Below, piece by piece: positions 30,048 through 38,131 of a stretch of 38,171 nt of DNA. Numbering within the stretch: position 1 is the first letter of the stretch; each line of letters starts with the position of its first letter. A model generated the notes under the pieces. That model worked only from the letters and a program-made list of their open reading frames with translations, had not been told where the DNA came from and searched no databases. A program made the position numbers and the translations under genes. The stretch comes from Virgibacillus sp. AGTR (GTDB lineage: Bacteria > Bacillota > Bacilli > Bacillales > Amphibacillaceae). The stretch is from assembly GCF_016919725.2 (NCBI RefSeq), contig NZ_JAJERH010000040.1, positions 1 to 38,171 on the forward strand, read 5' to 3'.

Positions 30048-30214
30048 ACATTTCTCCCCTTATCCCTTTATATAAAGCTAGTGTACCAAAAATAGTAATT
30101 TTTTGATATAGCCTACGATCTGTGAAGCACGCACAATTCCAAAACAATATATCCAGCATGTAAAGCAAAGAAATAAAAATCGTCTTGATTGAACTTATAT
30201 ATACTTTTTGATTG

Positions 30215-30390
30215 TTTACCCCACATATAACTGGCAGTAAGATCCCCATTTCAAGAAACAAAGTGAAACCAATTTGGGGAAGTGTGGATCGACTGCCAGT
30301 AAATGTCCGATTGGTTCAAGGGCCTTTAGCTCATACCCTTGTGGTACTAACAATCTGAGGTGAACCCCCCCCGGATTGAAGTTTCACTTT
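30215..30390 (-). repeat. Family B repeat, full-length copy (B1), minus orientation
   Basis: Read on the plus strand it runs from TTTACCCCACATATAACTGGC (about 30215) through CGACTGCCAGTAAATGTCCG to GTTTCACTTT at 30381-30390. The order mirrors the copy at 36683-36858. An unusual run of eight Cs (30365-30372) lies near the right end. It fills most of 30048-30427, a stretch otherwise without genes, and abuts the promoter of the decayed lipoprotein gene. Confidence 0.75.
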
Positions 30391-30427
30391 ATTGTATAAT
30401 GGTAAAAAACAGGTGAGGTGTGTTCTT

Positions 30428-31110: not shown

Positions 31111-31125
31111 TAAAGGAGAATGATA

Positions 31126-31875
31126 ATGACAATATCAGCAATCGACACAATCATGAGTCATCGGTCTATTCGTAAGTTTAAAAACCAAAAACTTTCAGAA
31201 GAACAAATTCAAACAATTGTGACAGCCGCACAGCAAGCATCCACCTCTAGTCATGTTATGGCTTATACGATAATTGGCATCACTGATGAAAGCATAAAAG
31301 AACAACTAGCAGAAATCTCTGGACAACCCTACGTAAAAGATAATGGACACCTATTTGTCTTTTGTGGTGATCTACATCGCGTGGAGCAAATTGGTAGCAA
31401 TGAAGAAAGGCTGGCTATGCAGAAAAGCTTGGAAAGCTCTGAACAATTTATTGTCATGACAATTGATGCAGCGCTTGCTGCACAAAATGCGGCAATTACT
31501 GCCGAAGGCCTGGGCTTAGGAATCTGCTTTCTTGGAAGCTTACGCAATGACGTTCAAAAAGTAAACGATTTATTGAGGCTACCTCCAAGAGTAATACCAT
31601 TGTTCGGATTAGCCGTTGGATATCCAGACCAAGAGCCTGAATTAAAGCCAAGATTACCATACGAAGCCGTTTACCATCATAATACTTACTTACAGATAGA
31701 AAAACAGCTTCCTTTTATTCAACAGTTCGATCAAGAGCTTCACGATTATTATCAGATACGGACGCAGAATAAGCGCAAAGATACATGGACAGAACAAATG
31801 GTGAGAAAATTTTCAAACCCGATTCGAATGGATGTTGCTCCATTCTTGAAAATGAAAAATGTAAACAAACAATGA
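31126..31875 (+). CDS. nfsA: FMN-dependent NADPH nitroreductase (NfsA/NfrA family)
   Basis: A 249-residue flavoprotein reductase. The N-terminal FMN-binding signature SHRSIRKF (about 13-20) and the C-terminal PRLPYEAVYHHNTY segment are typical of the NfsA/NfrA group, which reduces nitroaromatics, flavins or quinones with NADPH. The start ATG 31126 is 7 bases after AAAGGAG; an ATG at 31120 is too close. The gene starts 15 bases after the decayed lipoprotein gene and may depend on that gene's promoter. Confidence 0.85.
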   Translation: MTISAIDTIMSHRSIRKFKNQKLSEEQIQTIVTAAQQASTSSHVMAYTIIGITDESIKEQLAEISGQPYVKDNGHLFVFCGDLHRVEQIGSNEERLAMQKSLESSEQFIVMTIDAALAAQNAAITAEGLGLGICFLGSLRNDVQKVNDLLRLPPRVIPLFGLAVGYPDQEPELKPRLPYEAVYHHNTYLQIEKQLPFIQQFDQELHDYYQIRTQNKRKDTWTEQMVRKFSNPIRMDVAPFLKMKNVNKQ

Positions 31876-31881
31876 GCTTCA

Positions 31882-32016
31882 TTTATCCCGCATATAACTA
31901 GCAGCAGGTCCCTAAAGTGAAACCCAATATGATAAGTGAGGGATCGACTGCCAGTACATGTCCGATTGGTTCCTATCAGTGGAGGGAACAAGCTCCACTG
32001 ATTGTAGTTTCACTTT
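31882..32016 (-). repeat. Family B repeat (B2), minus orientation
   Basis: It runs from TTTATCCCGCATATAACTAGC (31882) through CGACTGCCAGTACATGTCCG to GTTTCACTTT (32007-32016). The internal hairpin here is ATCAGTGGAGGGAACAAGCT with CCACTGAT. It carries both AAAGTGAAACCC (31914-31925) and GTTTCACTTT arms, which can pair over the whole element. It starts 7 bases after the nitroreductase stop. Confidence 0.75.
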
Positions 32017-32025
32017 ATGTATATA

Positions 32026-32260
32026 ACTAGGGTGTGGAACGAAACTAAAATAGTTCGAATAAATATTAATATGAAGCGCAGTCAAAAATACGTAGATTTT
32101 TAAAGAAGAGCGCTTTTTCTGCGATGTATCGCTGTCGAAGTCTTCCTTATCCCACGGGGAAAGGCGCCAACTGTAGGTGAGCCCCAGGAAGGTTGTATAC
32201 TGATGGAGCAATGATAGAACCTATTTAAGTAAATAAAATTATTTTGTTCCAGTCTCTAGT
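32026..32260. repeat. Family A-related repeat, copy 3
   Basis: The left end ACTAGGGTGTGGAACGAAAC (32026-32045) and the right end TTTTGTTCCAGTCTCTAGT (32242-32260) are imperfect inverted repeats related to family A. The middle is unlike copies 1 and 2. The right end contains CTA (32256-32258), which is the TAG stop of the minus-strand gene. Confidence 0.65.
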
Positions 32261-32702
32261 TAAAATGAAGTTCTTCAACATGATCAATCACTTTCCACTC
32301 TCCATTGACTTTAAAACGTGCTTCAAAATATATATTTGTCATTTTTTCACTTCTTGGTATCGGAAATATATCTGGATCTTGAGGTATGTATACATTTCCG
32401 CTTTTAAGCGTTCTATTTACAGGACTACCAGTAAAATCATGATTTTTATGATCCATAGATACAGATATTAAGGGGGACTGATGATGTACAACTACCTCCT
32501 CATTTCCAATATACTGTAATGATCGAAAAACTTCTATTCCTTCTTGTGTGTTTTCAATTCGTATATGTAAAATAAAATCATCCATCTCTTTACTCACTGT
32601 TATATTCTCACCTAATTTTGCATTTGCATTCCTAAAGTCGCTATAAATAAGTAAGAGTAAAAAAATACCAATCATCAATAAAATAACAATGATTTTCTTC
32701 AC
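32256..32702 (-). CDS. Signal-anchored extracytoplasmic protein, unknown function
   Basis: A 148-residue protein with one N-terminal hydrophobic helix (IIVILLMIGIFLLLLIY, about 3-20) and a beta-rich outer domain. No lipobox Cys and no conserved catalytic motif are visible. The start is GTG 32702, 7 bases after GGGAGG. I do not recognise the family. It is divergent from the spoVA2 operon, and its stop codon is supplied by a repeat end. Confidence 0.65.
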   Translation of the reverse strand: MKKIIVILLMIGIFLLLLIYSDFRNANAKLGENITVSKEMDDFILHIRIENTQEGIEVFRSLQYIGNEEVVVHHQSPLISVSMDHKNHDFTGSPVNRTLKSGNVYIPQDPDIFPIPRSEKMTNIYFEARFKVNGEWKVIDHVEELHFN

Positions 32703-32810
32703 ATGAAATCCTCCCACAAAACCTCTTACATATAAGACGATTTACCCCTTAATAATGTTTCAATTTTTAATAATTTTTCATAACTGGTTATAATAGGAAA
32801 AATATCCATC

Positions 32811-32840
32811 GTATATTTACCTCTAGAAATCCTCATTCTA
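32811..32840 (+). promoter_or_regulatory. Sigma-G-type promoter of the spoVA2 operon
   Basis: GTATA at 32811-32815, an 18-base spacer, and CATTCTA at 32834-32840 match the forespore sigma-G consensus (GHATR, N18, CATWHTA) at every constrained position. It lies 31 bases before the first gene of the operon, whose products are forespore proteins in other bacilli. Confidence 0.75.
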
Positions 32841-32871
32841 ACTAATGATGATATCACAAAGGAGGATCTGT

Positions 32872-33078
32872 ATGACTGTATCAAGCCAAGTTAAACAAAC
32901 CATAGCAGGTCTTAAAAGTGCCCAAGCCAGTTTTGAACAATTTGCACTACAAACTGAAAACAAGCAAGCAAAACAGCTATATGAAAATGCTGCACAACAA
33001 ACAATGGCTATCTTACAAAGTGTAGAGCCTAGAGTGAAGCAAATAGAACAGGAAGAGCCTCAATATAAAGGGTTTTAA
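32872..33078 (+). CDS. DUF1657 protein, first gene of the spoVA2 operon
   Basis: A 68-residue helical protein of the DUF1657 family: MTVSSQVKQTIAGLKSAQAS, then FEQFALQTENKQAKQLYENA. Members are small spore proteins found with SpoVA genes. The ORF ends EEPQYKGF; the second stand-alone DUF1657 in this operon also ends EEPQYK. The start is ATG 32872, after AAAGGAGGATCTGT; an upstream ATG at 32845 is not preceded by a site. A terminator-like hairpin follows before the next gene. Confidence 0.9.
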   Translation: MTVSSQVKQTIAGLKSAQASFEQFALQTENKQAKQLYENAAQQTMAILQSVEPRVKQIEQEEPQYKGF

Positions 33079-33096
33079 GAAGAAATTAACTATTTC

Positions 33097-33125
33097 GAGG
33101 CTGGAATTACCAGCCTCCCTTTTTA
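33097..33125 (+). terminator. Hairpin inside the spoVA2 operon (attenuating terminator)
   Basis: GAGGCTGG (33097-33104) and CCAGCCTC (33110-33117) form a perfect GC-rich 8-bp stem followed by CCTTTTT. It would release part of the transcripts after the first gene, leaving DUF1657 in excess. Confidence 0.8.
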
Positions 33126-33151
33126 GCTCGATAAATGAAATGGGTGATTAA

Positions 33152-33625
33152 ATGCAATGGAGATGGGCTAGAAATTTAATGATAAGTTTCTTACTAATTA
33201 CATTAATTGGTTGTGGTAATGACTCTGCTTTAGAGCCACCGACCAATCAACCGAATGGAGACATAGATTTAACAAAAATATCGACAAATTCATCTGTAAG
33301 TCAACATCATGCAAACAGAGCGAAAGAAATACTTAGTCACTACCAGGAAATAACTACAGTAAAGGCAGTTAATACAGATAAACATATGCTAATTGCGATA
33401 GAAATACAGCATGGTAAACGATTTCAACTGGGAAAGATAAGAGAACAACTAACCAAACAGATGAAAAAGGAATTTAAAGACTTAAAAGTCGAGCTTTCGA
33501 CAGATAAGAAAATTGTTATGGAATTAGAAATATTAGAGAAATCTATTCAATCCAAATCCTATAGTAAGAAAAAGCTGGAAAAGAAATTGAAAAAGCTTAT
33601 TGAATTCTCCAAAGAGCAGACATGA
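33152..33625 (+). CDS. YhcN/YlaJ-family spore lipoprotein
   Basis: A 157-residue lipoprotein (lipobox LIGC, Cys 21) with a short Pro/Asn-rich linker and an alpha/beta domain ending in a very Lys-rich helix. Its position and length correspond to the YhcN/YlaJ-like gene of spoVA2mob operons; similar lipoproteins are spore-membrane proteins that support germination. The start ATG 33152 has GGGTGA upstream. It is 18 bases from spoVAC. Confidence 0.82.
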   Translation: MQWRWARNLMISFLLITLIGCGNDSALEPPTNQPNGDIDLTKISTNSSVSQHHANRAKEILSHYQEITTVKAVNTDKHMLIAIEIQHGKRFQLGKIREQLTKQMKKEFKDLKVELSTDKKIVMELEILEKSIQSKSYSKKKLEKKLKKLIEFSKEQT

Positions 33626-33643
33626 GGAAATGAGGGATAATGA

Positions 33644-34123
33644 ATGGCAGATAAAACGAAAAAAAATACACCGCCTGATGCTCAGGAATATCAAGCTTTC
33701 CAACAAGAGAGGGAAGTGAAAAGACCCATATTAAAAAATTGTGTAAAAGCCTTTTTAGTAGGTGGAATCATTTGCTTTATAGGTCAAATCATTTCCACTT
33801 TTTATATCTATTACTTTCATTTCACGGAACAAACTGCAGGAAATCCCACTGTAGCAACTCTGATCTTTATTACGATGTTGTTTACTGGATTTGGATTTTA
33901 TGATCGAATTGGTCAATTTGCTGGGGCTGGTTCTGCCGTACCCGTTACAGGGTTTGGTAACGCTGTTATTTCAGCAGCAATTGAGCACCGAACTGAAGGA
34001 TTTATCCTAGGAGTAGGTACGAACATGCTGAAATTAGCTGGACCGGTTATTGTCTATGGTGTCTTTTCTGCATTTGTAATTGCCCTCATCAAAACCATTC
34101 TCATTCAGTGGGGTGGATTATAA
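33644..34123 (+). CDS. spoVAC: SpoVAC, dipicolinic-acid channel subunit
   Basis: A 159-residue integral membrane protein with a soluble N-terminal tail and about four helices. Conserved text includes FYDRIGQFAGAGSAVPVTGF and IEHRTEGFILG. SpoVAC in the spore inner membrane is the mechanosensitive part of the calcium-dipicolinate channel. The start ATG 33644 is 7 bases after GAGGG. Its TAA overlaps the ATG of spoVAD (TAATG), so translation is coupled. Confidence 0.93.
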   Translation: MADKTKKNTPPDAQEYQAFQQEREVKRPILKNCVKAFLVGGIICFIGQIISTFYIYYFHFTEQTAGNPTVATLIFITMLFTGFGFYDRIGQFAGAGSAVPVTGFGNAVISAAIEHRTEGFILGVGTNMLKLAGPVIVYGVFSAFVIALIKTILIQWGGL

Positions 34124-35139
34124 TGCTGACTGGACACCAAACATGGGTGTTTGCTAATACTCCTGTCATTATTGCTACTGGAACGGTCGGCGGACCGTTC
34201 GAAGCAAATGGTAATATAGCGAATGACTTTGATTTACTACATGAAGATATGTGGCTAAAGCAAGATTCCTTTGAGAAAGCACAACAAGCATTAATGGAAG
34301 AAGCTTGTCAAATGGCTATCAAAAAGAGCAAAATCGAAAAAGAACAAGTTGAATTTTTTATTAGTGGTGATTTGATAAACCAAATTACACCTAGTAGCTT
34401 TGCTGCAAAAACGATCGGCATTCCTTACTTGGGAATTTTTAACGCCTGTGCTACCTCTATGGAGAGCCTTGCATTATCAGCTATGATCATAAATGCCAAA
34501 GGAGCAAACTATATCTTAAGCGGAACTTCAAGTCATAATGCAGCTGCAGAAAAACAATACCGATACCCTACCGAATATGGAGGACAAAAACCGCCAACTG
34601 CTCAATGGACAGTTACAGGAGCGGGATGTGCATTACTCGCGCAACATGGTCAAGGTCCAGTTGTTACTTCCGCAACTATAGGAAAAATTGTTGATATGGA
34701 AATGACAGACCCGTTTAATATGGGTGGAGCCATGGCACCAGCAGCAGTAAATACAATTGAAACACATCTTAAAGAACGGAACATCGACCCCTCCTACTAT
34801 GATTATATTATTACTGGTGACTTAGGACATATCGGTAGAGAAGTCTCCTTGGACTTATTGCAGAAAAGAGGCGTAACCATCCATGAAGACCAATATGTTG
34901 ACTGTGGATTAACCATTTATCGGGAAGGTCAACCCGTTCTAGCTGGAGCTAGTGGCCCTGCTTGCTCAGCCATTGTAACGTATGGTCATTTTCTTAATTT
35001 AATGAAGAAGGGTGAAATTAAACGCATATTAGTTGTAGCAACTGGTGCGCTTCATTCACCACTAAGTATCCAACAAAATGATCCAATACCTTGTATTGCG
35101 CATGCAGTATCAATAGAAGCAGGAAGTGATGTTTCATGA
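34123..35139 (+). CDS. spoVAD: SpoVAD, dipicolinic-acid-binding subunit
   Basis: A 338-residue thiolase-fold protein, the same length as B. subtilis SpoVAD, which binds dipicolinic acid during uptake into the forespore. Conserved segments: [19 protein letters not shown] (the Cys that is the thiolase nucleophile position), [20 protein letters not shown] and [10 protein letters not shown]. The start is ATG 34123, overlapping the spoVAC stop; a start at 34108 would lie inside spoVAC. It overlaps spoVAEb by 4 bases. Confidence 0.94.
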
Positions 35140-35486
35140 TCTTTTTTTGGGCATTTGTAATCGGAGGTCTAATTTGTGTAGTTGGTCAACTCTTACTCGA
35201 TGTTCTAAAACTAAATCCAGGGCAAACATTGACTATATTGGTTGTATCCGGGGCAATTTTAGACGGTTTTGGACTCTATGAACCATTAATCGACTTTGCT
35301 GGTGCAGGGGCTACTGTACCAATTACAAGCTTTGGGAATTCACTGGTACATGGAGCAATGGCAGAAGCAGAAATCCACGGTCTAGTTGGAGTTGTAACTG
35401 GGATGTTTGAAGTAACAAGCGCTGGTATTTCAGCTGCAATTATTTTTGGTGTTATCGGTGCCATAATTTTCAAACCAAAAGGTTAG
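35136..35486 (+). CDS. spoVAEB: SpoVAEb membrane subunit
   Basis: A 116-residue membrane protein with about three or four helices and the family text [20 protein letters not shown], homologous to the same loop in SpoVAC. It forms the channel complex with SpoVAC and SpoVAD. The ATG overlaps the spoVAD stop (ATGA), so translation is coupled. Confidence 0.92.
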
Positions 35487-35497
35487 GAGGGTATTGA

Positions 35498-35698
35498 ATG
35501 ACAGTAGGTTCTCAGGTGAAAGGCTGTTTTTCTTCTATAAAAAGTATAGAGGCTACATTGCATCTATTATCAGAAAAAACAACGGAACAAGAGGCACAGC
35601 AAAGATACCTTCAAGTAGAGCAGTTAATAACTGAAATAAAAAGAGATTTGCAACAGCACGTTATTCAACTTACGAAAGAAGAGCCACAATACAAGTAA
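35498..35698 (+). CDS. Second DUF1657 protein of the spoVA2 operon
   Basis: A 66-residue DUF1657 member with a different body from the first copy (KGCFSSIKSIEATLHLLSEK) but the same opening (MTV-SQVK) and the same ending, EEPQYK. TTAGGAGGGTATTG precedes ATG 35498, 11 bases after spoVAEb. Between a channel subunit and the YetF fusion, it occupies the canonical sixth place of spoVA2mob. Confidence 0.88.
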   Translation: MTVGSQVKGCFSSIKSIEATLHLLSEKTTEQEAQQRYLQVEQLITEIKRDLQQHVIQLTKEEPQYK

Positions 35699-35725
35699 TC
35701 TGTAATAAGAAAGGATAGATAACCG

Positions 35726-36583
35726 ATGCCAGAATGGGTTATTGTGATCATACGGTCATTTTCTCTACTGATCATTTTGTTTTTTATGACGAAATGGCTT
35801 GGGAAGAAACAAATCTCACAATTAAATGTGTTTGAATATATTTCCGGTATCGTACTTGGAGGAATAGTTGCCATCCACACGATTGATCCAAACGCAAACT
35901 TAATTTATGCTATACTGTCCATGTTTATTTGGTTTATCGTACCATTAACTGTAGAGTATATTTCTTTAAAAAGTAAACGATTTCGGAACTTCACAGAGGG
36001 AAGCAGCACTGTTTTGATTCAGGATGGAAAAATTATGGAAGATAATCTTAAAAAGGAAGGATATTCGACAGATGATCTTTTAGAGAAATTAAGGGATAAT
36101 AATGTTTTTCTTGCATCTGATGTTGAATTTGCTGTACTTGAACCGTCCGGTTCTTTAAGTGTTCTTCCTAAAAAAGAAAACCAACCTCTAACAGCAAAAG
36201 ATTTAGGATTAAAGCTGGCGCCTGAAAAAGAACCTCAAACGGTTATTATGGATGGTGAAATGTTGTTAGAACCTCTTGCCAACTTATCCTTAAGTGTCAA
36301 CTGGTTGGAGACTGAACTTGATAAACAAAATGTTAGTATAGAAAATGTATTTCTGGCGCAAGCGGATAATGACGGACAGCTATACCTTGATTTATATGAC
36401 GATTTGCTTGCTGTGACGGAGCCGTCAGAAAAACCTTTACTTATGGCAACCATGAAAAAATGTCAAGCTGACCTCGAGCTTTTTGCATTAGCAACTGAGA
36501 ATCAACATGCGAAACAACTTTACGAAAAAAACAGCAAAAAACTTCAGCAAGCTATCGATTTACTTAATCCATATCTCATCTAA
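35726..36583 (+). CDS. YetF (DUF421) - DUF1657 fusion, '2Duf' heat-resistance protein
   Basis: A 285-residue protein. Residues 1-75 form about three membrane helices and 80-215 the soluble DUF421/YetF domain (LNVFEYISGIVLGGIVAIHT, then FTEGSSTVLIQDG). Residues from about 230 are a DUF1657 domain (TMKKCQADLELFALATENQ). This is the two-DUF protein of spoVA2mob operons, reported to raise spore wet-heat resistance by altering the inner membrane. The fused DUF1657 lacks the EEPQYK tail of the two free copies. It ends the operon at the hairpin 36586-36626. Confidence 0.9.
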   Translation: MPEWVIVIIRSFSLLIILFFMTKWLGKKQISQLNVFEYISGIVLGGIVAIHTIDPNANLIYAILSMFIWFIVPLTVEYISLKSKRFRNFTEGSSTVLIQDGKIMEDNLKKEGYSTDDLLEKLRDNNVFLASDVEFAVLEPSGSLSVLPKKENQPLTAKDLGLKLAPEKEPQTVIMDGEMLLEPLANLSLSVNWLETELDKQNVSIENVFLAQADNDGQLYLDLYDDLLAVTEPSEKPLLMATMKKCQADLELFALATENQHAKQLYEKNSKKLQQAIDLLNPYLI

Positions 36584-36585
36584 TT

Positions 36586-36632
36586 ATACACCCCCTTTAC
36601 GTACTTATGTGTAAGGCGGGGTGTATCTTTAT
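36586..36632 (+). terminator. Terminator of the spoVA2 operon
   Basis: ATACACCCC (36586-36594) pairs with GGGGTGTAT (36618-36626), with inner pairing of CTTTAC and GTAAGG, followed by CTTTATTG. Confidence 0.8.
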
Positions 36633-36682: not shown

Positions 36683-36858
36683 AAAGTGAAACTTCAATCC
36701 GTGGGGTTTTTCTTTATCCCACACTGATAGTTAGTACCACAAGGGTATGACCTAAAGGCCTTTGAACTAATCGGACATTTACTGGCAGTCGACGATCCCT
36801 CACTTATCATATTGGGTTTCACTTTAGGGACCTACTGCCAGTTATACACGGGATAAAG
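36683..36858 (+). repeat. Family B repeat, full-length copy (B4), plus orientation
   Basis: It begins AAAGTGAAACTTCAATCCG (36683), has TTTATCCCACACTGATAG, a central hairpin (CCTAAAGGCCTTTG region), CGGACATTTACTGGCAGTCG, GTTTCACTTT (36816-36825), and ends ACTGCCAGTTATACACGGGA TAAAG. The AAAGTGAAAC and GTTTCACTTT arms are exact inverted repeats, and TTTATCCCACACTGAT pairs loosely with the right-hand end. It accounts for most of the 312-base gap between the spoVA2 operon and the symporter gene. Confidence 0.78.
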
Positions 36859-36895
36859 TAGTTATCTTTATTATATACGAAAGGGACTGAGTAAC

Positions 36896-38131
36896 ATGAG
36901 GAACAAATTGAAGGCCTATCGTTTTCCCATTATTTTACTATCATCGATCATTATAGGTTCTATTATTGGTCTTGCATTTGGTAAAGAGGCAACGGTAATT
37001 AAACCATTGGGTGACTTATTCATTAATTTATTATTTATGATTGTTGTTCCACTCGTTTTCTTTACCATATCATCTGCGATTGCCAGCATGGATAGTATGA
37101 AACGGCTCGGGAAAATCATGGGTTCTATGCTTACAATATTTATTGTTACTGGTATCATCGCATCAATATTTATGCTTACAGCCTCAGTAATTTTCCAGCC
37201 TGGTTCAGGTGTTGATATTCCACTTATGGAGCCAGATAATGTAGAAGAAATGAGTTTTTCTGAACAGATCGTCAATACATTTACCGTACCTGATTTTGTA
37301 GATTTATTTTCTCGTGAAAACATGCTTGCACTCATTATATTTTCTGTTTTAATCGGCGTAGCAACCGGTATTACAGGAGAAAAAGGTCGCCCATTCTCGA
37401 AATTCTTAACAAGTGGCTCTGAAGTATTTATGAAAATTATACAATTAGTCATGTATTATGCTCCTATTGGTTTAGGCGCTTATTTCGCTGCTTTAGTTGG
37501 TGAATTTGGAGCAGACCTGATTGGTGACTATGCAAAAGCTGTCATTATATATTATCCGGTTTCCTTCCTTTATTTTGTAATTGGCTTTACACTATACGCC
37601 TTTATAGCTGGTGGCAAAAAAGGAACCGTTCGATTTTGGAAGAACATTTTATCCCCTGCAGCTACCTCTTTAGGTACTGGTAGTAGTATTGCATCGCTTC
37701 CTGTGAATTTACAGGCAGCTAAACGAATTGGCGTACCAAAAGATATTAGGGAGACTATACTTCCCCTAGGAGCAACTATACATATGGATGGTTCATGCCT
37801 TTCTGCGATGTTAAAAATTTCCTTTGTCTTTGGTGTTTTTAATAAGGATTTTACAGGTATAGATACATTCTTAACAGCAATCGGTATCTGTTTGTTATCA
37901 GGAATTGTTATGAGTGGTATTCCTGGTGGTGGTTTTATGGGTGAGATGATGATTATTACCTTATACGGACTACCTATGGAGGCTTTACCAATTATATCGG
38001 CCATCGGTGTCGTTGTCGATCCACCAGCCACAATGGTTAATGTTACAGGTGACACAGTTTCAAGTATGCTTGTTACAAGACAATTAGAAGGAAAAGATTG
38101 GATGGAAAAAGCAAAAGCATCAACTGCTTAA
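36896..38131 (+). CDS. Dicarboxylate/amino acid:cation symporter (DAACS)
   Basis: A 411-residue secondary transporter of the glutamate/dicarboxylate symporter fold: eight helices and two re-entrant hairpins. HP1 is SLGTGSSIASLP, HP2 is GIPGGGFMGE, and helix 8 has D375, N382 and D386 (DPPATMVNVTGD). In helix 7 the usual NMDGT sodium motif is HMDGS (296-300), which may change cation coupling. The substrate is probably an anionic amino acid or a C4-dicarboxylate. AAAGGGA precedes ATG 36896. An incomplete hairpin (GGAGC/GCTC near 38143-38158) follows as the window ends. Confidence 0.88.
   Translation: MRNKLKAYRFPIILLSSIIIGSIIGLAFGKEATVIKPLGDLFINLLFMIVVPLVFFTISSAIASMDSMKRLGKIMGSMLTIFIVTGIIASIFMLTASVIFQPGSGVDIPLMEPDNVEEMSFSEQIVNTFTVPDFVDLFSRENMLALIIFSVLIGVATGITGEKGRPFSKFLTSGSEVFMKIIQLVMYYAPIGLGAYFAALVGEFGADLIGDYAKAVIIYYPVSFLYFVIGFTLYAFIAGGKKGTVRFWKNILSPAATSLGTGSSIASLPVNLQAAKRIGVPKDIRETILPLGATIHMDGSCLSAMLKISFVFGVFNKDFTGIDTFLTAIGICLLSGIVMSGIPGGGFMGEMMIITLYGLPMEALPIISAIGVVVDPPATMVNVTGDTVSSMLVTRQLEGKDWMEKAKASTA

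What the first reader, a model, noticed from the sequence alone, without database searches (positions are those of the whole stretch)
32811..36632. Complete spoVA2mob-like spore heat-resistance operon with its own forespore promoter
The seven genes and their order (DUF1657, YhcN/YlaJ, SpoVAC, SpoVAD, SpoVAEb, DUF1657, YetF-DUF1657) reproduce the spoVA2mob operon. In B. subtilis that operon travels on a Tn1546-like element and gives highly heat-resistant spores. Here it is read from a consensus sigma-G promoter (GTATA-N18-CATTCTA), with overlapping stops and starts in the channel genes. No transposase is next to it; intergenic repeats flank it instead. The operon itself is known; its setting here is what deserves attention.
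Basis: partly seen in the sequence, partly recalled or inferred. Interest (0 to 1): 0.7.

Follow-up and report, generated by a model that had tools for sequence, protein, structure and literature searches.

The report
Sole spore channel, old operon gutted
The operon called a borrowed heat-resistance add-on looks like this bacterium's only set of genes for loading its spores with their protective acid, while the older operon that normally does this job has lost its channel genes, a swap that seems to have recurred in several related bacterial families.

Summary
The seven-gene spoVA2-type operon is real (32811-36583): sigma-G-like promoter, DUF1657, YhcN/YlaJ-like lipoprotein (NJ2), SpoVAC, SpoVAD, SpoVAEb, DUF1657, YetF-DUF1657 (2Duf). 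The "mobile accessory" reading fails. SpoVAC, SpoVAD and SpoVAEb were found nowhere else in this genome, and SpoVAD is single in 8 of 8 genus members. The block is syntenic in all 8. The family's copies form one clade (bar two copies and one genus) that excludes transposon/plasmid spoVA2mob. No transposase was found in the window, and the flanking repeats are a genome-wide dispersed family. The real finding lies on another contig: the classical spoVA1 locus (sigF-AA-AB-AC-AD-AEb-AEa-AF-lysA) survives here as sigF-AA-AB-AF-lysA, its remaining genes intact and under purifying selection. The same "hollow" state was seen in 68 of 93 chosen loci across the order; a single origin is rejected and roughly 6-8 events are needed. 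Most likely spoVA2 became the only DPA channel and the resident channel genes were lost, while a SpoVAF-centred germination module stayed. Membership in spoVA2 is solid; heat resistance and expression are untested. The held papers searched do not describe the hollowing, though one published gene table shows it unremarked.

The parts
32811..32840 (+). sigma-G-type promoter GTATA-N18-CATTCTA
   Evidence: only match in 38 kb, both strands, 0.84 expected; like site in 5 of 26 other loci tested; consensus itself recalled
32872..33078 (+). DUF1657 protein, 68 aa (ORF may be extended to 32845)
   Evidence: PF07870 76 bits; AAAGGAGG upstream
33097..33117 (+). terminator-like hairpin between DUF1657 and NJ2, followed by a T run
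   Evidence: z -3.5; stem >=8 with T-rich tail in 36 of 58 loci against 2.9% of shuffles, 22 of 58 fail
33152..33625 (+). NJ2, YhcN/YlaJ-like lipoprotein, lipobox LIGC, predicted extracytoplasmic cap
   Evidence: PF09580 weak; lipobox pattern in 38 of 49 sequences including the window; YhcN 7peg ranks fifth in the fold search, E 0.043, TMt 0.64
33644..34123 (+). SpoVAC (channel membrane subunit)
   Evidence: TIGR02838 215 bits; with SpoVAEb the only such pair found in the genome
34123..35139 (+). SpoVAD (cytoplasmic plug)
   Evidence: PRK12404 607 bits; sole copy found in genome
35136..35486 (+). SpoVAEb (channel membrane subunit)
   Evidence: TIGR02839 162 bits
35498..35698 (+). second DUF1657 protein, 66 aa
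   Evidence: PF07870 44 bits
35726..36583 (+). 2Duf: YetF membrane/C-terminal domains plus DUF1657
   Evidence: PF04239, PF20730, PF07870; 20 family rows one clade (97*)
36586..36626 (+). terminator-like hairpin at operon end
   Evidence: fold z -4.0; not listed by the consensus scan
32256..32717 (-). divergent neighbour, 153 aa, one helix plus beta sandwich; marker of the locus in this family, function unknown
   Evidence: near spoVA2 in 20 of 45 family loci, 0 of 41 others; model pLDDT 90.6
31120..31875 (+). nitroreductase, conserved flank
   Evidence: 8 of 8 genus loci including the window
36896..38131 (+). dicarboxylate/amino-acid:cation symporter, conserved flank
   Evidence: 8 of 8 genus loci including the window

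Best explanation
This is a vertically inherited chromosomal spoVA2 operon that serves as the organism's only dipicolinic acid (DPA) channel. In the forespore, from a sigma-G promoter, it makes the C/Eb membrane channel, the D plug inside and the NJ2 lipoprotein cap outside, plus 2Duf and two DUF1657 proteins. The complex imports DPA during sporulation and releases it in germination. The resident spoVA1 locus on contig C161 has lost AC, AD, AEb and AEa but keeps AA-AB-AF. Shown by sequence: gene content, single copy, synteny, clade membership, the hollow locus, purifying selection on AA, AB and AF in the genus, and recurrence across the order. Inferred from published work on homologues: complex architecture, DPA transport, and an AF/FigP ion channel that amplifies the germination signal. 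Inferred here: once a second channel was present the resident one was dispensable and was deleted, while the AF-centred module was kept because it serves germination whichever channel is used.
For: One SpoVAD found in own genome and only the C/Eb pair of this operon. C161 locus: dacF-spoIIAA-spoIIAB-sigF-AA-AB-AF-lysA, 15 bp between AB and AF; no SpoVAEa in 8 of 8 genus members; FigP/YqhR in 15 of 15 genomes searched. Genus synteny 8 of 8. SpoVAD tree: spoVA1/spoVA2 split 100*; 50 of 53 family rows one clade (98*) without the 5 plasmid copies; C-D-Eb and 2Duf trees agree. Hollow 68, full 25 of 93 loci; in the 89-row tree 8 state changes, 7 forced by starred branches; one clade of all hollow rows rejected, p 3.6e-38. 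AB and AF kept in 66 of 66 hollow tree rows, AEa in 27; AA is present by choice, since loci were found through it. dN/dS of AA, AB, AF about 0.03-0.30 in four genus pairs. B. anthracis work (PMC13059800, parts 1-4 of 8 read): spoVA2 necessary and sufficient for wild-type DPA levels; NJ2 in the C2/D2/Eb2 complex; spoVAF the gene of spoVA1 that matters most for germination.
Against: No experiment in this organism. NJ2 is under the Pfam cut-off. Upstream of AA the sigma-G pattern is found in 18 of 23 full and 27 of 66 hollow tree rows but in 0 of 8 genus members; looser searches in the window's clade gave 3 and 2 of 31 against 0.9 and 1.9 expected, so expression of AA-AB-AF is unproven. AA-AB are not always kept with AF: 10 of 17 loci examined in genomes without detected SpoVAA keep AF alone, and G019 has no close AF (best 32% identity). 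SpoVA2-type SpoVAD also occurs in clostridia, so differential loss from an ancestor with both is as possible as acquisition. The genome is in 215 contigs.
Confidence: 0.85

Rival explanations
1. One reading: a mobile spoVA2mob operon acquired beside an intact spoVA1, giving extra heat resistance.
For: Identical seven-gene order to the B. velezensis copy beside a Tn3-family transposase, and 70-74% SpoVAD identity to most Bacillaceae plasmid copies; 2Duf is present.
Against: No intact spoVA1 and no second SpoVAD found; syntenic in 8 of 8 genus members; separate clade; no transposase in the 34 window ORFs scanned; flanking repeats are genome-wide.
Confidence: 0.04
2. Artefact: the spoVA1 channel genes exist but were missed through assembly gaps or divergence.
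For: 215 contigs.
Against: AB and AF are 15 bp apart on one contig; same state in all 8 genus members, one of them (G141) a single contig; the same Pfam searches find the spoVA1 proteins of G131 and a match in B. subtilis.
Confidence: 0.02
3. The leftover AA-AB-AF is a decaying relic with no function.
For: No recognisable sigma-G site upstream in the window genus; AA-AB absent from 10 AF-only loci, and AEa absent from 39 of 66 hollow rows.
Against: AB and AF open reading frames in 66 of 66 hollow tree rows; dN/dS about 0.03-0.30 in genus pairs, broadly like neighbouring sigF and lysA; FigP kept in 15 of 15.
Confidence: 0.07
4. Not replacement by transfer but old duplication and differential loss: the ancestor of the order had both channels and lineages lost one or the other. 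This shares the functional reading and differs only in history.
For: SpoVA2-like SpoVAD with DUF1657/2Duf in clostridia; 16 of 23 full tree rows come from genomes that also carry a spoVA2-type SpoVAD.
Against: SpoVAD2 also rides on plasmids, once beside a Tn3-family transposase; two family genomes (G109, G024) hold copies outside the family clade.
Confidence: 0.4

Closest known systems
spoVA2 locus of the Bacillus cereus group (PMC13059800; PMC10126465)
   Same: Same seven genes and order, predicted sigma-G promoter, NJ2-C-D-Eb core.
   Different: There it coexists with a complete spoVA1; here it is the only channel found and spoVA1 is gutted.
spoVA2mob on Tn1546 in B. subtilis-group strains (PMC5133452)
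   Same: Same seven genes, order and promoter type.
   Different: No transposon found; own chromosomal clade; not an addition to an intact spoVA1.
Classical spoVA1 operon between sigF and lysA (B. subtilis; seen here in G131)
   Same: Shares C, D, Eb homologues (46-67% identity to G131's copies).
   Different: Different place, different partner genes; the counterpart locus here is AA-AB-AF only.

Membership tests
spoVA2 operon | DUF1657, NJ2, C, D, Eb, DUF1657, 2Duf in order | tested here: met
   NJ2 below Pfam cut-off but 10 of 13 aligned members match
spoVA2 operon | SpoVAD groups with spoVA2, not spoVA1 | tested here: met
   100* split
spoVA2 operon | forespore sigma-G expression | tested here: inconclusive
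   consensus-like site present, 0.84 expected by chance; no expression data
spoVA2mob (Tn1546-borne) | carried on a Tn3-family transposon | tested here: not met
   no transposase or recombinase in 34 ORFs; compare L159
spoVA2mob (Tn1546-borne) | sequence clade with transposon/plasmid copies | tested here: not met
   union of 31 family and 4 plasmid/transposon rows rejected, p 2.7e-7 (grouping named after the SpoVAD tree was seen)
spoVA2mob (Tn1546-borne) | addition to an intact spoVA1 | tested here: not met
spoVA2mob (Tn1546-borne) | raises spore wet-heat resistance | not testable with these tools
   needs spores
classical spoVA1 | AA-AB-AC-AD-AEb-AEa-AF between sigF and lysA | tested here: not met
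   only AA-AB-AF there

The most novel reading that the evidence does not exclude
The spoVA1 operon is two separable machines: an exchangeable DPA channel (C-D-Eb) and a resident germination-signal module centred on SpoVAF. Evolution has repeatedly swapped the channel for the capped spoVA2 version and left the signal module in place, so SpoVAA and SpoVAB act with SpoVAF and the receptors rather than as parts of one particular channel. A chimera in G109 (NJ2-Eb at the resident site, C-D in a second operon) would be a swap caught half-way.
Probability: 0.5. Interest if true: 0.75.

Novelty: new variant of a known kind. Interest (0 to 1): 0.62.

Why it matters
DPA loading is central to spore dormancy, and the channel is taught from B. 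subtilis spoVA1. Here an operon first noticed as a mobile heat-resistance factor appears to be the sole channel of most of a bacterial family, and recurrent loss of C-D-Eb from the old operon acts as a natural dissection of it. It gives direct tests for the open question of what SpoVAA and SpoVAB do, and warns that finding 2Duf/spoVA2 in a genome does not by itself flag acquired heat resistance.

Tried and rejected
Mobile element bounded by repeats: rejected; the ~180-nt repeat has 47 reported matches across the genome. Single hollowing of all lineages: rejected. Three separate hollowings inside the family: not needed; holding the 42 family hollow rows together gave a likelihood 31 units higher than the free quick tree (p-AU 0.76), so one search's 10 hollow clades become about 8. 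A sigma-G site upstream of the hollow AA in the window genus: not found. SpoVAA as an obligate partner of SpoVAF: rejected as a strict rule. Rfam: nothing at gathering threshold in the window. SpoVAD on phages: four weak records of unnamed faecal phages, under 60% identity, not followed. Naming the strain: not possible; nearest named hits are Oceanobacillus, Virgibacillus sp. YIM 98842, Ornithinibacillus, Paucisalibacillus and Lentibacillus. NJ2 fold search: no hit below E 0.001; YhcN 7peg ranks fifth. The founding spoVA2mob paper and the SpoVAF/FigP paper are not held; statements about them rest on passages of PMC5133452, PMC10126465, PMC11841064 and PMC13059800. Loci were chosen, not random, and found through SpoVAA: one or a few per genus of the family and mostly non-classical genomes of the order, so 68 of 93 is not a prevalence. 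Four of the 93 (L108 and L128 full, L168 and L169 hollow) were dropped from the tree for too many gaps. In 3 of the 66 hollow genomes (G021, G108, G198) I did not annotate the SpoVAD locus; each has a SpoVAD match. The 31-row and 20-row family groups leave out L100 (counted there as order), G109 and g37. The 58 loci include at least three held under two locus numbers. Genomes without SpoVAA that I did not examine for AF: G002, G017 aside, also G040, G116, G117, G127, G225, G284, G289. Only 28 of the 80 named loci were annotated.
Full report
Observation. The first gene most likely starts at 32872. The promoter match is the only one in 38 kb, but 0.84 would be expected by chance, and only 5 of 26 other loci tested have a strict match upstream, so it rests on its position more than on its pattern. 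A hairpin with a stem of at least 8 pairs and a T-rich tail sits between DUF1657 and NJ2 in 36 of 58 related loci (a few held twice) against 2.9% of shuffles. It may let the small DUF1657 protein be made in excess of the channel (inference).

Copy number. With the window's SpoVAD as query, and with the Pfam models for SpoVAD and for SpoVAC/SpoVAEb, the window's own genome (4.7 Mb, rated 100% complete) shows this operon and nothing else. In the family, 155 of 159 genomes have a SpoVAD match; counting that table, 141 of the 155 have exactly one, including all 8 members of the genus. The C/Eb pair was also counted in two genus-mates, one pair each.

The other locus. SpoVAA lies on contig C161. 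Read out, that stretch is dacF-spoIIAA-spoIIAB-sigF-spoVAA-spoVAB-spoVAF-lysA: the classical spoVA1 position with AC, AD, AEb and AEa missing and AB 15 bp from AF. SpoVAEa is absent from all 8 genus members and present in 3 of the other 7 genomes searched. FigP (YqhR), the partner of SpoVAF according to PMC11841064 (passages read), is present in 15 of 15. In four genus pairs for which dS could be worked out (one of them with dS near or above 1) dN/dS is about 0.07-0.30 for AA, 0.06-0.08 for AB and 0.03-0.08 for AF, broadly like neighbouring sigF (0.02-0.15) and lysA (0.06-0.10); the ratios are mine from the dN and dS. So what is left is maintained in the genus. The fifth pair, which holds the window's own genome, is saturated at synonymous sites.

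How far it reaches. I read 93 chosen loci found through SpoVAA: 68 hollow and 25 with AC-AD-AEb or at least AD. One genus of the family (g37, 10 genomes) has SpoVAA and SpoVAD 1.5-2.2 kb apart in all ten, and the one read out, G131, has the classical operon. On a tree of five neighbouring proteins (89 rows) the state changes at least 8 times, 7 forced by well-supported branches. With the full state taken as ancestral there are 10 hollow clades, about 8 once the family is allowed to be one. One clade of all hollow rows is rejected at p 3.6e-38. These are quick trees on five linked genes; I take roughly six to eight events as the safe statement. All 66 hollow tree rows keep AB and AF; 27 keep AEa. 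In 63 of the 66 genomes I annotated the SpoVAD locus, and it is spoVA2-type. Of the 23 full rows, 7 belong to genomes with one SpoVAD only and 16 to genomes that also carry a spoVA2-type SpoVAD (14 annotated; G206 and G294 by 62-71% identity). Among genomes without a detected SpoVAA I examined 17 spoVAF loci: 10 keep AF alone between sigF and lysA, one keeps AEa-AF, and six still have SpoVAD at the locus without a detected AA-AB. G019 has neither SpoVAA nor a close SpoVAF.

Descent of the window's operon. Genus synteny is nitroreductase - 153-aa protein (divergent) - operon - SDF symporter in 8 of 8 genomes including the window. Of 45 family loci 36 share at least one of moeA, nitroreductase, the 153-aa gene or the symporter nearby; 0 of 41 loci in other families do. 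Some family loci were fetched with longer flanks; among those of about 9 kb, as in the other families, it is 18 of 26. The nine family loci that share none are L073, L079-L081, L084, L093, L100, L102 and L104; three of these are second copies or lie outside the family clade. Seven of eight named Oceanobacillus loci have the 153-aa gene there too. In the SpoVAD tree spoVA2 and spoVA1 separate at 100*, and 50 of 53 family rows form one clade (98*); the exceptions are G109 and a second copy in G024, which lie outside it, and g37, which is spoVA1. C-D-Eb (31 family rows, 99*) and 2Duf (20 rows, 97*) agree, and the B. velezensis copy beside a Tn3-family transposase and three other plasmid copies fall outside. 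So the operon is a spoVA2 by kinship, and not spoVA2mob.

Function. PMC13059800 (parts 1-4 of 8 read) showed in B. anthracis that spoVA2 is necessary and sufficient for wild-type DPA levels, that NJ2 is part of the complex and predicted to cap it, and that within spoVA1 it is spoVAF that matters most for germination. It describes an organism with both loci; a term search of its main text found no survey of other lineages. The hollow genomes look like the natural end point of that division of labour. Across the loci NJ2-C-D-Eb is the constant set (44 of 45 family loci, 36 of 41 others), while DUF1657 and 2Duf come and go (each near 29 of 45 family loci). In G169 and G197 NJ2-C-Eb sits apart from D, which fits NJ2 belonging with the membrane part. 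In G109 the resident site keeps NJ2-Eb while C-D is in a second operon without them, a chimeric channel; its genus-mate G110 has C, D and Eb together.

What is known. PMC5133452 and PMC10126465 (passages read) and PMC13059800 describe spoVA2mob and chromosomal spoVA2. PMC3533761 (passages read) lists spoVAC, spoVAD and spoVAEB in its table of conserved sporulation genes. According to PMC11841064 (passages read) loss of SpoVAA or SpoVAB in B. subtilis causes premature germination that loss of gerA suppresses. A gene table for Virgibacillus halodenitrificans (PMC10556750, two passages seen) lists spoVAA, spoVAB and spoVAF with 20 bp between the last two and, in those passages, makes no comment. 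Searches of the held library, seen as listings, turned up no title or abstract on the gutted spoVA1 or on spoVA2 as sole channel; subscription papers, including the founding spoVA2mob paper, are not held.

Limits. No expression or spore data; promoter of the hollow locus not identified in the window genus (0 of 8); direction of history (acquisition, or old duplication with loss) open, since clostridia carry DUF1657-2Duf-C-D-Eb arrangements.

Noticed in passing
window 30210-30395, 31880-32018, 36683-36860: Copies of a ~180-nt dispersed intergenic repeat; 47 matches reported in the genome, 314 first-look candidates of which 40 were scored; fold z -2.0 for the 36683 copy; no Rfam match at gathering threshold.
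   Followed up: partly
window 32256-32717 (-): 153-aa protein of this family, one helix plus beta sandwich (pLDDT 90.6); top PDB hit by E-value is a GGA1 appendage domain, highest TM-score among those listed is B. subtilis intracellular proteinase inhibitor 3isy (TMt 0.71, E 2.3e-3); next to spoVA2 in 20 of 45 family loci.
   Followed up: partly
L016 and L329 (G109): Chimeric channel: resident nitroreductase-hyp153-NJ2-SpoVAEb site lacks C and D; a second operon DUF1657-C-D-DUF1657-2Duf lacks NJ2 and Eb.
   Followed up: partly
L120/L327 (G169), L155/L328 (G197): SpoVAD lies with DUF1657 and 2Duf while NJ2-SpoVAC-SpoVAEb sit at another locus.
   Followed up: partly
window 33097-33117: Terminator-like hairpin after the first gene of spoVA2 operons (36 of 58 loci), also in the B. 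velezensis transposon copy.
   Followed up: partly
L310-L318, L321: Loci in which spoVAF alone was detected between sigF and lysA.
   Followed up: partly
L324-L326 (f14): Reverse case: AC-AD-AEb-AF kept, AA, AB and AEa not detected.
   Followed up: no
L240-L242, L244, L261, L264, L277: In clostridia and relatives the order is DUF1657-2Duf-C-D-Eb with no NJ2 detected in the held 3-kb flanks, suggesting the cap joined later.
   Followed up: no
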